This document shows, piece by piece, positions 52,585 to 57,730 of a DNA stretch of 64,000 nt. Each line of letters opens with the position of its first letter. Positions within the stretch are counted from its first letter, which is position 1. Source of the DNA: Stappia indica (GTDB lineage Bacteria; Pseudomonadota; Alphaproteobacteria; Rhizobiales; Stappiaceae); the NCBI RefSeq assembly GCF_020177335.1, contig NZ_JAIVMG010000012.1, positions 90,737 through 154,736 on the forward strand. Reading direction: 5' to 3'. Made by a program: the position numbers and the translations under genes. The notes beneath the pieces were generated by a model, which ran no database searches, had not been told where the DNA came from, and saw only the letters and a list, made by a program, of their open reading frames with translations.

Positions 52585-53397
52585 TCAGTCGGCCAGTCCG
52601 AGAACATCGGCCATCGAATAGAACCCGGGCTTCTGATTGCGCGCCCAGAGCGCGGCCTTGACCGCGCCATGGGCAAAGATCTGACGGTCCTGGGCGTGGT
52701 GCGACAGGGTGAGCGTCTCCAGCGGCCCGGCGAACATCACCGAATGGTCGCCGATCACCGTGCCGCCGCGCAGGGCCGCGTAGCCGATCTTGCCGCGCGG
52801 GCGAACGCCGGTGATGCCGTCGCGGTCCCTCAGCTCGTTCCCCGCCAGCGGGATGCCCCGACCCTCGGCCGCCGCCTCGCCCAGAAGCAGCGCGGTTCCC
52901 GAGGGCGCGTCGACCTTGTTGCGGTGATGGGCCTCCAGGATCTCGATATCGAAATCGGCGTCCAGCGCCGCTGCCGCCTGCCTGACAAGCGCGGCCAGCA
53001 GATTGACGCCAAGGCTCATGTTGCCGGAGCGCACGATCCGGGCATGACGACCGGCGGGGCGGATCTCAGCCAGATCGTCTTCGCTCATGCCGGTGGTGCC
53101 GATCACATGCACGACCCGCGCCTGCGCCGTCAGTTCCGCGAAATGCCGGGTCGCCGCCGGCGCGGTGAAGTCGAGCACGCCTTCCGTCGCCGCGATCACC
53201 GAGAGCGGATCATCGGTCACCGGCACGCCGAGCGGCCCCACTCCGGCGAGCATTCCCGCGTCCGCGCCAAGCTCCGGCACGCCCGGACGTTCGATGGCGC
53301 CGCCAAGACACACCCCATCCATCTCGTGTAGCGCGCGTATCAACGCCCGACCCATTCGCCCGGCGGCGCCAACGACGGCAAGACGCATATCGCTCAT
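52585..53397 (-). CDS. dapB: 4-hydroxy-tetrahydrodipicolinate reductase
   Basis: 270 residues. The NAD(P)-binding [16 protein letters not shown] opens the enzyme; [12 protein letters not shown] and [18 protein letters not shown] hold the catalytic His-His and Lys. It serves lysine and diaminopimelate synthesis. Start at 53397 ([10 protein letters not shown]) has TTGGAG about 7 bases upstream. It is the upstream neighbour of gpmA; divergent from luxP. Confidence 0.95.
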
Positions 53398-53697: not shown

Positions 53698-54822
53698 ATG
53701 AAACAATGCCGGCCCTATCTTCCGCACGCATTACTTGTGATTGCATTCCTTGTGCTTTCCGTCCCGTTCCCAACCCAGGCAGGCACCGGCCCACGGGCCG
53801 AATACTGGGACCTTGATGAGTTTCTCGCCAGCCAGCCGAAACAACCAGAAATTGTCTCCCGTTTCAACGAACGGGTCCAAGGGCCCGGCCAGCGCGTAAC
53901 CACAAGCCTGCCACCGGTGCGTATCGCGGTGGTGTATCCGGGAAAGCAGGTGTCGGATTACTGGCGCCGCAGCATCGAATCATTCACGGCCCGCCTCGAT
54001 GAAATCGGTCTTCGCTACGAGCTGGAGTCTCATGTCACTGCACCGTCGACGGAAGTTCGCCTGCAAATGCAGTATATTGGCGAGGCGCTGAAATCGGACC
54101 CCGACTATCTGGTGTTCACGCTCGACGCGTTCCGCCATCGCAGCATCATCGAGCGACTGATCGCCCGCGGCCGGCCCAAGGTCATCCTGCAGAACATCAC
54201 CACGCCGCTGCGTGCCTGGTCCAAAAACCAGCCGTTTCTTTATGTCGGCTTCGACCATGCGACCGGCACCAGGGCCCTGGTGCAGCACTATCTCGCCCGC
54301 CACCCCGATCCGGAACGCTATGCCATCTTTTATGGCTCGCGCGGCTATGTCAGCCACGCCCGCGGTGAGACCTTCCGTCTGGCGATGGCGGGGGAGCCGT
54401 CCAAGACCCTCTCCACCTCGTATTTCGTCGGCTTCGATCGCGACAGCGCCCGCACTGCCGCCCGGACCCTGCTGATGGAGGATCCGGAGCTCTCCTACAT
54501 CTTCTCCTGCTCCACCGACATCGCGCTCGGCGTGCTCGATGCCATCCGGGAGATGGGGCGCGAAGGTGAGGTCCACACCAATGGCTGGGGCGGCGGCAGC
54601 GCCGAGCTCGAACAGATCGCCGTGGGCGCGCTGGAAGCCACCGTCATGCGCATGAACGACGACAATGGCGTGGCCATGGCCGAGGCGATTTCGCTCGACA
54701 TTCAGGGGCGCGGGCATGAGGTGCCGCAGGTCTATTCGGGAGACTTCGCCCTGGTCACATCCCGGGACGGCCCGGAGCGCATCGAGACCCTGAAACGCAG
54801 AGCCTTCCGGTATTCGCAATGA
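53698..54822 (+). CDS. luxP: LuxP-like periplasmic autoinducer-2 binding protein
   Basis: 374 residues. A Sec signal peptide (HALLVIAFLVLSVPFPTQA) precedes a Peripla_BP_4 two-lobed fold. It aligns throughout with Vibrio harveyi LuxP: VVYPGKQVSDYW, LVFTLDAFRHR, LQNITTPLRAW, QPFLYVGFDHATGTRAL, NGWGGGSAELE, TVMRMNDDNGVAMAEAI and the end PERIETLKRRAFRYS. The LuxP residues I recall as AI-2 contacts are kept: Q84, S86, W89, N166, R222, S272, T273, D274, W297, R318. It overlaps the receptor gene by ATGA. A plain sugar-binding protein is much less likely. Confidence 0.88.
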   Translation: MKQCRPYLPHALLVIAFLVLSVPFPTQAGTGPRAEYWDLDEFLASQPKQPEIVSRFNERVQGPGQRVTTSLPPVRIAVVYPGKQVSDYWRRSIESFTARLDEIGLRYELESHVTAPSTEVRLQMQYIGEALKSDPDYLVFTLDAFRHRSIIERLIARGRPKVILQNITTPLRAWSKNQPFLYVGFDHATGTRALVQHYLARHPDPERYAIFYGSRGYVSHARGETFRLAMAGEPSKTLSTSYFVGFDRDSARTAARTLLMEDPELSYIFSCSTDIALGVLDAIREMGREGEVHTNGWGGGSAELEQIAVGALEATVMRMNDDNGVAMAEAISLDIQGRGHEVPQVYSGDFALVTSRDGPERIETLKRRAFRYSQ

Positions 54823-57575
54823 AAGACAGGCGCGACTTCAGCTTCAACCGGTTTGTGCTCGGTCTTTTTCTGGTGGCTCTGCTGGCGACCTCCGCCGCGC
54901 TGTTTTCCATCAGCTATGTCGGCAGCCTCTCCATTGTCGATCATGAGCTGGAGCGCTTCGCCAAGCGCGAACAGACCCTCGCCCGGCTGGTATTCGAGCA
55001 AAATCTCTCCCGCCTCGACACCTACCTCAGGGCCTTGTCCAAGGACACCAAGCTGAAACAGGCGCTGCGGGCCGGCGACCAAGAGGCCACAACGCGCATT
55101 CTCGGCGCCGCGACGGACACCCCGTTGGGGGCCCAATTCGAGATGCTGCTCCTCGACCGCCCGATGGCGCCGGACTGGGCGGATGCCAGCTTTTCGATCT
55201 TCGACCTTCACCGCGTGTTGCCGGCGGACCGGCGCCAGACGCTCCCGCTCGGCAGCTGGATGATCCTGGCCGACGAAACCCGGACAGATGGCACGCTGGT
55301 CGCCGCCGAGGCCATCCCGGTGGTGGACGAGCGCGACGGCAAGGTGCTGGGCCACCTGGTTGGCGGCTTTGTCCTCAATGACACGATCGCATTGCTGGGC
55401 GAATTGTCCCGCGCCCTTGAAACCGACAGTCTCGCCCTGTTTCACGGCACTGCCGCCATTGCCAGCGTTGGTCGCCTGGGCTCGTCTCCGCTTGACCAGG
55501 ACACCTGCGCGACGCTGACCAAAGATGCCCATATGCTGGCCGGCGACCAGCTTCTCGTCCGCAGCGAATTGAAGGTCGACCGGCACGGTCACCCTCTCTA
55601 CGTGGTCACCGAGCGACCGAGCGAGACGATCGAGAACATCCGCTCCACCTATCTGGAGCTGTTCGCCCCGTTCCTGCTCTACATCCTCGCCGCCGCGCTG
55701 GTCGCCGCCTATGTGCTGCATCGCTTTACCAGCCCCGCGCTGCAACGGCTGCTTGCCTACGCCTCGCGCATTCGCCGCGACAGCTCGGATCTCACCTATC
55801 ACCCCGGCGCGGTGAAGGAGTTCAACGATCTCGGGCGCAATCTGCAGCACGCCTTCACCGATCTCCGGGATACGGACCGGCAATTCCGCGAGTTGATCGA
55901 CGGATCCTTCCAGGGCGTTTGCATTCACGCCGATCTGGAAGTCCTCTACCTCAACAGGTCGCTGCTGAACATCCTCGGCTACGCCCCCTCGGACCGGGAC
56001 CTGCTGGTGTCTCGCGGCGTTCTCGCACTGGTCGCGCCGGAAGAGCATGACCGGATGAAATCCTACCTGCGGGCACGCAAGCAAGGCGCGTCGGCGCCCG
56101 GTGTGTTCGAGGCGAAGGGCCTCAGCAAGACCGGCGAGCGGCTCTGGATCGAGTTGCATGTACGCCCCGCCCGCTGGGATGATCGCGATGCCTATTACGT
56201 CACCATCACCGACATTTCCGAACGCAAGCGGCAGGAAGAGCTGATCATCCGGCAAGCGAATTTCGACATGCTCACCGGTCTGCCGAACCGCACGCTGTTT
56301 CGCGACAGGCTGCTTCAGTCGATTGCCCGGACCCAGTGGAACGGCGGCGTTTTCGCCCTGCTGTTCGTTGACCTCGACCGCTTCAAGAACATCAATGACA
56401 GCCTCGGTCACAGCGCCGGCGACATGCTGATCAAGGCCGCCGCCGAACGGATCAGTTGCGTGCTCGATGACCACGATACCGTGGCGCGGCTGGGTGGCGA
56501 CGAGTTCGCGATCATCCTCGCCAATGCCCGCAATGTCTGGGAAATCGAAATGCAGTCCGCGCGCATTCTGGAACAGCTTGCCCGGCCGGTGATGGTCAAT
56601 GGCAACACAGAGGTGTTTTCCACCGCCAGCATCGGCATCACCGTGTCGCCCAACGACGGCGACGATGACGAGGTGTTGCTGCGCCAGGCCGACACGGCGA
56701 TGTATCACGCCAAAGCGGAGGGCGGGAACAAGCTGCGCTTCTTCTCCTCCAGCATGAACGACCATCTGGCCCGTTCGATGGAGATCGAGAGCTCCCTGCG
56801 CCGGGCGCTGGAGACCCAGGAGCTGCGCCTGCATTACCAGCCCCTCGTCGATGTCGCCAATGGTCAGGTGATCGGCTGCGAGGCGCTGGTCCGCTGGAAC
56901 CATCCGGAAAAGGGGCCGATCCCACCGGCGGATTTCATCCCGGTTGCCGAGGACACCGGTCTGATCGTCCCCCTGGGCGCCTGGGTGCTGGAGGAGGCCT
57001 GCCGCTTTCAGCGCGCCTGCGCGGATAAGGGCCTCTCCCTGCCGGTGATCAGCGTCAATGTCTCTCCGCGCCAATGCCGGGATGAAACCTTCGTCGACAT
57101 GGTGCGCGAGACCCTGAAGCGCACCCGGATGCCTGCCCGCTGCCTGCATCTGGAAATCACGGAGAGCGTCATGTTCGACGAGACCGGGGCCAGCCCGATC
57201 GAAACGCTGAACGCCATTCGCGATCTTGGCGTGCGCCTGTCGCTCGATGACTTCGGCACCGGCTATTCGTCGCTGAGCAACCTCAAACGCTTCCCGATCG
57301 ACACCCTGAAGATCGACCAATCCTTCGTTCGGGATCTGGAAACCGACGAGGAAAGCCGGGCGCTGGTGAAGGCGATCATTGCCATGGCCGCCAGCCTCGG
57401 CATCAACGTCATCGCCGAAGGCGCCGAAACGCAAGGCCAGTGCCAGACCCTGCTGGCCCTCGGCTGCCGCCAGATCCAGGGCTATCATCTCGGCCGGCCG
57501 ATGCCAGGGGCCGAGTTTCTTGCCTATCTGGATCAGCCCGACAAGGCCGACCGGCTTGATGCAGGGGTTGCCTGA
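54819..57575 (+). CDS. LuxQ-like sensor fused to PAS-GGDEF-EAL (c-di-GMP enzyme)
   Basis: 918 residues. Helix 1 (about 12-34), a periplasmic region of about 240 residues resembling the LuxQ periplasmic domain (IPVVDERDGKVLGHLVGGF, VLNDTIALLGELSRALETDS), helix 2 (about 278-303), a HAMP-like linker (to about 350), PAS (about 355-480), GGDEF (RLGGDEFAIIL, 559-563) and EAL (E688). The I-site RxxD is lost (DDHD). The EAL domain keeps all usual residues: EALVRW, NVSP, LEITES, DDFGTGYSS, LKIDQSF, AEGAET, QGYHLG. There is no histidine kinase or receiver domain. LuxP, made from the overlapping gene, is the likely ligand partner. Confidence 0.85.
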   Translation: MKDRRDFSFNRFVLGLFLVALLATSAALFSISYVGSLSIVDHELERFAKREQTLARLVFEQNLSRLDTYLRALSKDTKLKQALRAGDQEATTRILGAATDTPLGAQFEMLLLDRPMAPDWADASFSIFDLHRVLPADRRQTLPLGSWMILADETRTDGTLVAAEAIPVVDERDGKVLGHLVGGFVLNDTIALLGELSRALETDSLALFHGTAAIASVGRLGSSPLDQDTCATLTKDAHMLAGDQLLVRSELKVDRHGHPLYVVTERPSETIENIRSTYLELFAPFLLYILAAALVAAYVLHRFTSPALQRLLAYASRIRRDSSDLTYHPGAVKEFNDLGRNLQHAFTDLRDTDRQFRELIDGSFQGVCIHADLEVLYLNRSLLNILGYAPSDRDLLVSRGVLALVAPEEHDRMKSYLRARKQGASAPGVFEAKGLSKTGERLWIELHVRPARWDDRDAYYVTITDISERKRQEELIIRQANFDMLTGLPNRTLFRDRLLQSIARTQWNGGVFALLFVDLDRFKNINDSLGHSAGDMLIKAAAERISCVLDDHDTVARLGGDEFAIILANARNVWEIEMQSARILEQLARPVMVNGNTEVFSTASIGITVSPNDGDDDEVLLRQADTAMYHAKAEGGNKLRFFSSSMNDHLARSMEIESSLRRALETQELRLHYQPLVDVANGQVIGCEALVRWNHPEKGPIPPADFIPVAEDTGLIVPLGAWVLEEACRFQRACADKGLSLPVISVNVSPRQCRDETFVDMVRETLKRTRMPARCLHLEITESVMFDETGASPIETLNAIRDLGVRLSLDDFGTGYSSLSNLKRFPIDTLKIDQSFVRDLETDEESRALVKAIIAMAASLGINVIAEGAETQGQCQTLLALGCRQIQGYHLGRPMPGAEFLAYLDQPDKADRLDAGVA

Positions 57576-57730
57576 GGCAGCCGTCGCGAAAGCAGCAAGA
57601 GGGGTAGGGCCGAAGGGGCGAAAAGGCCTGTCTTCCGCAGACCAGAACCGCCGCGCGGCAGCTCGCCGCTCCCGGATCGGCGCCCTGGCACCGTCTGCAA
57701 GGCGCCACCGGAAACACTCCGCGATCATGC

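What the first reader, a model, noticed from the sequence alone, without database searches (positions are those of the whole stretch)
53698..57575. LuxP/LuxQ-like receptor wired directly to cyclic-di-GMP enzymes
A LuxP homologue and a membrane protein with a LuxQ-like periplasmic sensor overlap by ATGA. In Vibrio, LuxPQ signals through a histidine kinase and phosphorelay. Here the sensor is followed by HAMP-PAS-GGDEF-EAL and no kinase. This predicts that AI-2 binding changes c-di-GMP levels in one step. The domain reading is direct; the function is inference. I am not aware of a described system of this form in Alphaproteobacteria.
Basis: partly seen in the sequence, partly recalled or inferred. 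Interest (0 to 1): 0.93.

Follow-up and report, generated by a model that had tools for sequence, protein, structure and literature searches.

The report
AI-2 listener built on c-di-GMP enzymes
A Stappia-type bacterium, in whose genome no gene for the signal-making enzyme LuxS was found, carries a LuxP-type binding protein next to a membrane protein joining a LuxQ-type sensor to c-di-GMP enzyme domains instead of a kinase, a pair that likely lets it overhear the AI-2 signal of other bacteria and would turn it directly into a change of its own internal messenger.

Summary

The pair is in 20 of 87 family genomes, 14 of 14 in its genus; LuxS was found in 0 of 87, so it would be a listener. Of the 80 best-scoring named LuxP loci, 52 have a kinase partner and 17 GGDEF-EAL (12 Stappiaceae-type, 5 gammaproteobacterial). 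In LuxP-paired copies checked, EAL residues are complete in 25 of 25 and GGDEF in 23, so breakdown is the likelier output.

Against a simple reading: 18 of 38 family copies lack luxP but keep the enzyme, and similar sensors sit beside TctC-type binding proteins elsewhere.

One-step AI-2 to c-di-GMP is known from direct-binding receptors, and NspS-MbaA is a polyamine analogue; a LuxP-fed form was not found in ten paper searches. New variant of a known kind. AI-2 binding and enzyme control are untested.

The parts
53698..54822 (+). luxP-like gene, 374 aa periplasmic binding protein (Peripla_BP_4), with the ten AI-2-pocket positions Q84 S86 W89 N166 R222 S272 T273 D274 W297 R318
   Evidence: Pfam, PDB sequence match to LuxP E 4e-100, pocket residues, model pLDDT 88.5
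53698..53784 (+). likely signal peptide (about residues 1-29; hydrophobic core 4-22; cleavage site not predicted by a tool)
   Evidence: hydropathy scan; reading of the translation
54819..54822 (+). ATGA overlap of stop and start codons, likely translational coupling; 4-bp overlap kept in 19 of 19 relatives with the pair
   Evidence: sequence, coordinates
54819..57575 (+). membrane protein, 918 aa: TM - LuxQ-type sensor - TM - linker - PAS - GGDEF - EAL, no kinase
   Evidence: Pfam, hydropathy
54855..54911 (+). first transmembrane-like helix (residues 13-31)
   Evidence: hydropathy, long helix 9-74 in the model
54924..55604 (+). LuxQ-periplasm sensor domain (PF09308, residues 36-262)
55659..55715 (+). 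second transmembrane-like helix (residues 281-299)
   Evidence: hydropathy, helix 269-320
55716..55853 (+). linker (residues 300-345), HAMP-like by position only; not confirmed as HAMP
   Evidence: no HAMP hit; 2 of 60 sensors match weakly; low-confidence model here
55917..56222 (+). PAS domain (PAS_9, residues 367-468)
   Evidence: Pfam E 3.2e-11
56256..56732 (+). GGDEF domain (residues 480-638); RLGGDEF motif intact, RxxD inhibitory-site position reads DDHD
   Evidence: Pfam E 2.1e-44; motifs
56793..57500 (+). EAL domain (residues 659-894); E688, N747, E779, D810, D811, K831, E867, Q887 present
   Evidence: Pfam E 6.3e-76; motifs
52585..53397 (-). dapB, divergent neighbour, the synteny landmark of this locus in the family (not part of the signalling unit)
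   Evidence: NCBIfam TIGR00036 E 3.4e-77; synteny

Best explanation
The two overlapping genes encode a LuxP-type periplasmic binding protein and a membrane protein in which a LuxQ-type sensor is joined to PAS, GGDEF and EAL domains, and together they likely form a listening receptor: LuxP would bind AI-2 released by other bacteria, dock on the sensor, and thereby shift c-di-GMP synthesis and breakdown inside the cell without any phosphorelay. Shown by calls: gene order and overlap, domain make-up, LuxQ-like predicted fold, an intact AI-2 pocket, intact GGDEF and EAL motifs, and no LuxS match in this genome or in any of 87 family genomes. Inferred: that the ligand is AI-2 (probably the borated form, as the two arginines named as contacts of the borate ester are kept, though distant sugar-type SBPs keep them too), that LuxP contacts this sensor as in Vibrio, and that ligand binding changes enzyme output. 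Direction, my commitment at about 60%: the regulated output is mainly EAL breakdown of c-di-GMP, because the EAL residues are complete in 25 of 25 LuxP-paired copies checked while the GGDEF motif is degenerate in two of them. AI-2 would then lower c-di-GMP and favour leaving a surface; the opposite sign is not excluded.
For: LuxP at 338 bits versus 33 for ribose-binding protein. Ten pocket positions identical to V. harveyi in the window, in 63 of 80 named loci and in 16 of 19 family relatives with the pair; in 10 of 10 distant SBPs Q77, S265 and D267 are all replaced; three of those ten, scanned with neighbours, sit beside a transport permease. No transporter gene flanks the window's luxP: neighbours are dapB, phosphoglycerate mutase and pnp. 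LuxQ-periplasm over Pfam cut-off, and the LuxQ fold ranked first. 4-bp overlap in 19 of 19 relatives that have the pair; pair in 14 of 14 genomes of the genus. LuxS 0 of 87, SahH present in the own genome. EAL residue set complete in 20 of 20 family copies with luxP and 5 of 5 gammaproteobacterial ones; GGDEF motif present in 20 of 20 and 3 of 5. Precedent for an SBP controlling a GGDEF-EAL protein: NspS-MbaA (PMC8967002, passages; PMC9993111, abstract).
Against: In 18 of 38 family copies luxP is absent and the enzyme is there, and those sensors are no more diverged than paired ones, so the sensor may answer to something else. TctC-type SBPs sit beside PF09308-PAS-GGDEF-EAL proteins in two other genomes, so the sensor fold does not specify AI-2. 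One same-genus LuxP (L157, genome 89% complete, 7% contaminated) has N159, R215, T266, D267 and R310 replaced. R215 and R310 also occur in the distant SBPs, so they do not discriminate. LuxP and sensor distances correlate no better than LuxP and EAL (r 0.784 and 0.807), so no specific co-evolution was shown. No complex was modelled; nothing was measured.
Confidence: 0.66

Rival explanations
1. The pair is an SBP-coupled c-di-GMP receptor, but the ligand is a sugar or another AI-2-like polyol rather than AI-2. It works the same way with another input.
For: LuxP belongs to the ribose-binding fold family. Sensor proteins of the same type are found next to TctC-type SBPs in L130 and L131 and next to a 29%-identical LuxP-like SBP in L134. 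L157's pocket has changed.
Against: All ten AI-2-pocket residues are kept in the window, whereas ten distant SBPs of the same bacterial family change three of the ten positions or more. A 2025 survey reports that three randomly chosen LuxP proteins out of 267, from Proteobacteria and Deferribacterota, bound AI-2 (PMC12268683, passage).
Confidence: 0.18
2. LuxP is accessory: the membrane protein senses something directly through its double-PAS sensor, and LuxP only tunes it or is a relic on the way to loss.
Against: luxP is kept in 14 of 14 genomes of the window's genus, and there its pocket is unchanged, or differs at one position (one S265A, one unreadable letter), in all but L157. No dCache_1 hit in the window protein (dCache_3 weakly, E 0.009, in the sensor alone). 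Five positions are conserved with luxP but kept in at most 3 of 18 copies without it; of these N187 is also common elsewhere (22 of 34 other paired sensors, 3 of 10 orphans).
Confidence: 0.12
3. The protein is a catalytically silent or c-di-GMP-binding effector (LapD-like) rather than an enzyme.
For: Tandem GGDEF-EAL proteins are often degenerate (general knowledge); the GGDEF motif is degenerate in L076 and L079.
Against: The GGDEF motif and all eight EAL residues checked are intact in the window, and the EAL set is complete in 20 of 20 family copies with luxP. Closest solved structures by sequence are the motility regulator 4rnh and 5m3c (E 1e-111 or better); the entry named cyclic dimeric GMP binding protein, 3pjw, is far weaker (E 7e-35).
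Confidence: 0.04

Closest known systems
LuxPQ of Vibrio (V. harveyi, V. cholerae)
   Same: LuxP with the same pocket residues; LuxQ-type periplasmic domain and fold; luxP directly upstream of the sensor gene.
   Different: LuxQ is a hybrid histidine kinase feeding a phosphorelay; here the output is PAS-GGDEF-EAL and no LuxS was found in the host.
NspS-MbaA (V. cholerae, Sinorhizobium meliloti)
   Same: A periplasmic binding protein controls a membrane GGDEF-EAL protein (PMC8967002, passages; PMC9993111, abstract).
   Different: Ligands are polyamines; NspS is a different SBP family (recalled, not tested here); the sensor families were not compared here.
[not shown]
   Same: AI-2 changes c-di-GMP output of one membrane protein in an alphaproteobacterium (PMC7584622, passages).
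   Different: AI-2 binds the dCACHE domain directly, no binding protein; the window protein has no dCache_1 hit.
YeaJ of Salmonella (GAPES1 sensor)
   Same: AI-2 to c-di-GMP in one protein (PMC12268683, passages).
   Different: GAPES1 domain, direct binding; the passages name only a GGDEF output.
LsrB in AI-2-nonproducing Alphaproteobacteria (S. meliloti, Rhodobacter)
   Same: Hosts without LuxS that are thought to eavesdrop on AI-2 (PMC3386761, passages).
   Different: LsrB belongs to the Lsr uptake system, not to a membrane signalling enzyme.

Membership tests
LuxP (AI-2-binding periplasmic protein) | Full-length similarity to Vibrio LuxP, clearly above sugar-binding relatives | tested here: met
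   338 bits over residues 35-373 versus 35 bits for the best other chain and 33 for ribose-binding protein
LuxP (AI-2-binding periplasmic protein) | AI-2-contacting residues kept | tested here: met
   10 of 10 in the window. Seven hydrogen-bonding ones are named in PMC9687752; S265, D267 and W289 as direct contacts are recalled. The numbering fits the alignment with one constant offset
LuxP (AI-2-binding periplasmic protein) | Binds AI-2 (S-THMF-borate) | not testable with these tools
   needs purified protein
LuxQ sensor module | LuxQ-periplasm domain (PF09308) over the curated cut-off | tested here: met
   52.1 bits, cut-off 25.7; 60 of 60 sensors that I aligned match at E <= 0.01
LuxQ sensor module | Fold of the LuxQ periplasmic domain | tested here: met
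   [not shown]
LuxQ sensor module | Direct contact with LuxP | not testable with these tools
   no complex prediction on offer; distance correlations not specific
LuxPQ two-component receptor | Histidine kinase output (HisKA, HATPase) | tested here: not met
   none listed; GGDEF and EAL instead
LuxPQ two-component receptor | Host makes AI-2 by LuxS | tested here: not met
   LuxS 0 of 1 own genome, 0 of 87 in the family; listed because the Vibrio systems have it, LuxPQ membership does not strictly need it
CahR-type dCACHE AI-2 receptor | dCache_1 domain in the sensor | tested here: not met
   no dCache_1 hit listed for the window protein; dCache_3 at E 0.12 for the whole protein and 0.009 for the sensor part; 4 of 60 aligned sensors match dCache_1
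NspS-MbaA type SBP plus GGDEF-EAL receptor | SBP gene next to a membrane GGDEF-EAL protein with a periplasmic sensor | tested here: met
NspS-MbaA type SBP plus GGDEF-EAL receptor | Polyamine-binding SBP of the NspS family | tested here: not met
   the SBP is Peripla_BP_4/LuxP; that NspS is of another SBP family is recalled
Active diguanylate cyclase | GGDEF signature; RxxD inhibitory site optional | tested here: met
   RLGGDEF present; RxxD absent at that aligned position in all 38 family copies, the window included. Activity itself not tested
Active EAL phosphodiesterase | Catalytic and metal-binding residue set (positions recalled from the EAL literature) | tested here: met
   E, N, E, D, D, K, E, Q all present in the window and in 20 of 20 family copies with luxP. 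Activity itself not tested

The most novel reading that the evidence does not exclude
LuxP plus the LuxQ sensor is a portable AI-2 front end that evolution has plugged onto different engines: kinases, a serine-phosphatase domain and, apparently three times, c-di-GMP enzymes. In Stappiaceae, where no LuxS was found, it is a pure listening post that reads neighbours' borated AI-2 straight into c-di-GMP, mainly by controlling its breakdown; in Roseibium lineages the antenna gene was deleted cleanly while the enzyme lived on with a new input.
Probability: 0.45. Interest if true: 0.82.

Novelty: new variant of a known kind. Interest (0 to 1): 0.66.

Why it matters
Papers still describe LuxP chiefly as a Vibrio protein feeding a kinase: 'present only in Vibrio spp.' (PMC7584622, 2020), Vibrio in a 2026 review (PMC13220807), transport into the cell for LuxP in a 2025 survey that counts 267 LuxP proteins (PMC12268683); a 2021 paper lists LuxP in Desulfovibrio (PMC8586430). 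All were read as passages. If the pair works as predicted, AI-2 has a LuxP-fed receptor type whose output is a second messenger, in bacteria that only listen. That makes two open questions directly testable: whether LuxS-negative marine Alphaproteobacteria respond to AI-2, and how a binding protein controls a GGDEF-EAL enzyme. The luxP-minus relatives at the same locus give ready natural controls.

Tried and rejected
HAMP in the window protein: not found by Pfam, weak in 2 of 60 aligned sensors; left as a linker. The hydropathy scan also flags residues 848-866, which lie inside EAL and were not taken as membrane.

Three origins of the GGDEF-EAL pairing: the LuxP tree needs three changes between GGDEF-EAL and kinase (four when loci with other or no outputs are counted), but the AU test does not reject one clade (p 0.065), so 'three origins' is a reading, not a result. 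That tree held 64 rows: the window and 63 of 80 loci; 17 Vibrionaceae loci were dropped beforehand to thin them, and sequences were cut to their last 350 residues.

Co-evolution of LuxP and sensor as evidence of contact: LuxP distances correlate with the sensor (0.784) but as well with EAL (0.807); partial values given EAL are 0.266 (sensor), 0.068 (PAS) and -0.284 (GGDEF). Not specific (19 genomes; one of 20 lacked dapB in its stretch).

Relaxed sensor after luxP loss: not seen. Mean identity of sensors to Stappia is 0.298 (6 Roseibium-type copies with luxP), 0.313 (15 without), 0.307 (the pair L141, L147) and 0.258 (L159).

The distant 30-33% LuxP-like proteins of the family as AI-2 receptors: rejected for now, pockets differ and the three whose neighbours I scanned sit by a transport permease. 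Of the ten fetched, two (L178, L179) gave no ORF hit.

First output sorting by motif patterns was replaced by similarity searches and Pfam.

Literature: ten paper searches. 'LuxQ periplasmic' with GGDEF gave 0 papers. LuxP with GGDEF gave 30 papers, 25 listed; I read passages of eight of the 25 (PMC7584622, PMC8301110, PMC12268683, PMC5247445, PMC13220807, PMC8586430, PMC3183031, PMC8895600) and found no LuxP-fed GGDEF or EAL protein in those passages. The top hit, PMC11796354 (AI-2 and c-di-GMP in V. furnissii through a histidine kinase), was seen in the listing only. Most subscription papers are not in the library, so absence from print is not shown.

The solved LuxP-LuxQ complex could not be used for interface mapping (no coordinates on hand), and no pair was modelled as a complex. 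The LuxP model was not searched against structures, as the sequence match already sufficed.
Full report
What is there. Two genes on the + strand overlap by ATGA. The first, 53698-54822, is a 374-aa periplasmic binding protein with a hydrophobic N-terminal stretch. Its best solved relatives are four LuxP sequences of V. harveyi (338 bits, E 4e-100 to 6e-100); the best other chain scores 35 bits and ribose-binding protein 33 bits. The second, 54819-57575, is 918 aa: a transmembrane-like helix, a LuxQ-periplasm domain (PF09308, 52.1 bits, cut-off 25.7), a second transmembrane-like helix, PAS, GGDEF and EAL. No kinase domain is listed.

Ligand pocket. I mapped the V. harveyi pocket onto the alignment; its numbering fits with one constant offset. 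Seven hydrogen-bonding residues (Q77, S79, W82, N159, R215, T266, R310) are named in PMC9687752 (passages); S265, D267 and W289 as direct contacts are recalled. The window keeps 10 of 10. Of 80 named LuxP loci, 63 keep all ten, 9 have Ala and 5 Thr for S265, and 3 differ at one other position (one of these an unreadable letter). Of 19 family relatives with the pair, 16 keep all ten, one has S265A, one has an unreadable letter, and one (L157) has five of ten replaced. As a contrast, ten distant binding proteins of the same bacterial family (30-33% identical) all replace Q77, S265 and D267, while keeping R215 and R310. For three of these (L180, L181, L182) neighbours were scanned: a transport permease in all three, an ABC ATPase in the two where that neighbour was also submitted. 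The window's luxP has no transporter beside it: the flanks are dapB, phosphoglycerate mutase and pnp.

No signal maker found. LuxS has no match in the window's genome nor in any of 87 genomes of its family, while the same search finds it in 5 of 14 control genomes. The genome has SahH. So AI-2 would have to come from other species. Eavesdropping by LuxS-negative Alphaproteobacteria has been proposed before for LsrB (PMC3386761, passages).

Spread. LuxQ-periplasm is found in 9 of 385 genomes sampled from the class and 16 of 398 from the phylum, both counts including the window's own genome, but in 38 of 87 of the family and 14 of 14 of the genus. Close LuxP (49-100% identity) is in 20 of 87: the same 14 and 6 of another genus; 11 further genomes have only 30-33% matches. 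I fetched the locus of all 37 relatives. In all 37 the protein carries GGDEF and EAL regions similar to the window's. In 19, luxP lies directly upstream with a 4-bp overlap; in 18 it is absent. dapB lies divergently upstream in 36 of 37 (not found in the stretch of L148). The distance from dapB to the enzyme is 1329-1617 bp in the 18 measured loci with luxP and 367-611 bp in the 18 without, where no LuxP match better than E 7 was seen. On a tree of the enzymes the label needs three changes (0 of 500 shuffles as low; quick tree, some long branches). Because the LuxP sequences themselves form one supported family clade split like the enzymes, loss of luxP is more likely than repeated gain at one site; the tree itself cannot tell gain from loss.

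What survives the loss. In copies without luxP the GGDEF motif is kept in 17 of 18 and the EAL residues in 17 of 18, the exception lacking the later part of EAL. Their sensors are no more diverged than those of luxP-carrying Roseibium-type copies. So the enzyme likely has a use without LuxP there. This is the strongest evidence against treating LuxP as the only input of this protein type.

Outputs of LuxP elsewhere. A protein search listed 120 of 1418 LuxP-like proteins at E <= 1e-30 among 7998 scored. The genome scan found 297 relatives and kept the best 80, which favours window-like sequences. Of the 80: 52 have a histidine-kinase partner (49 by comparison with a Vibrio LuxQ kinase, and L057, L060, L066 by Pfam), 17 GGDEF-EAL, 1 SpoIIE phosphatase (L017), 3 a sensor without output domain (L052, L064, L080), 1 is cut by the contig end (L068) and 6 have no partner next to them (two of these at a contig end). 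The 17 are 12 Stappiaceae-type loci (L002-L013; L007 and L013 are not named Stappiaceae but match contigs of family genomes by length) and five gammaproteobacterial ones: Marinobacterium L025, Zobellella L027, Oceanisphaera L028, Oceanospirillum L076 and L079, all five with PF09308, GGDEF and EAL by Pfam. On the LuxP tree they fall in three groups by host, not one group by output, though a single clade is not rejected (AU p 0.065).

Enzyme side. In the window GGDEF reads RLGGDEF; the inhibitory RxxD position reads DDHD, and none of 38 family copies has RxxD there. The eight EAL positions checked are complete in 20 of 20 family copies with luxP and in 5 of 5 gammaproteobacterial ones, while the two Oceanospirillum proteins read INADEY or INADEF instead of GGDEF. 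The common denominator of LuxP-linked c-di-GMP proteins is therefore EAL, which is why I lean to breakdown as the controlled step. The sign of the AI-2 effect is a guess.

How it likely works. By the Vibrio model (established knowledge, LuxPQ), AI-2 binding to LuxP rearranges LuxP-LuxQ pairs in the membrane. Here the same front end would act through the PAS linker on GGDEF-EAL dimers. An SBP driving a GGDEF-EAL protein is established for NspS-MbaA, where different ligands tip MbaA towards synthesis or degradation (PMC8967002, passages). The parts fit; none of the dynamic steps was tested.

Verdict. It is a new variant of a known kind: LuxP-LuxQ input on a c-di-GMP enzyme output, arranged like NspS-MbaA.

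Noticed in passing
L141, L147, L159, L160, L162-L175 (family relatives): The LuxQ-type sensor-GGDEF-EAL gene sits at the same place beside dapB but luxP is cleanly missing; the enzyme motifs are mostly intact. Its present input is unknown.
   Followed up: yes
L130:1-3286 (-) and L131:373-3519 (+): A LuxQ-periplasm-PAS-GGDEF-EAL protein directly follows a TctC-type (tricarboxylate) binding protein instead of LuxP: a second SBP family apparently feeding the same kind of sensor and output.
   Followed up: partly
L017:7001-10473 (Desulfococcaceae): LuxP followed by LuxQ-periplasm-PAS-SpoIIE phosphatase: LuxP sensing apparently wired to a serine phosphatase.
   Followed up: partly
L052, L064, L080 (Oceanimonas, Oceanisphaera): LuxP followed by a LuxQ-type sensor with PAS domain(s) but no output domain, while a sister locus (L028) has GGDEF-EAL: shortened or frame-broken copies, cause not examined.
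   Followed up: partly
L157:1782-2945: A same-genus LuxP with an open frame whose pocket positions N159, R215, T266, D267 and R310 are replaced, with a long-branched partner: possible change of ligand. Source genome is 89% complete with 7% contamination.
   Followed up: no
L134:2-3189 (G591): A 29%-identical LuxP-like protein overlaps a 698-aa-plus protein with a partial LuxQ-periplasm match and no recognised output in the stretch held; the same genome also carries L131.
   Followed up: no
L044, L051, L071, L074: LuxP with the pocket intact (or only S265A) but no sensor gene next to it (two Methylocystaceae MAGs, two Motilimonas): partner elsewhere or absent.
   Followed up: no
window 54732-57728 (-): A 998-codon open frame runs antisense across the whole GGDEF-EAL gene; in this GC-rich DNA probably a by-product of codon usage.
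   Followed up: no
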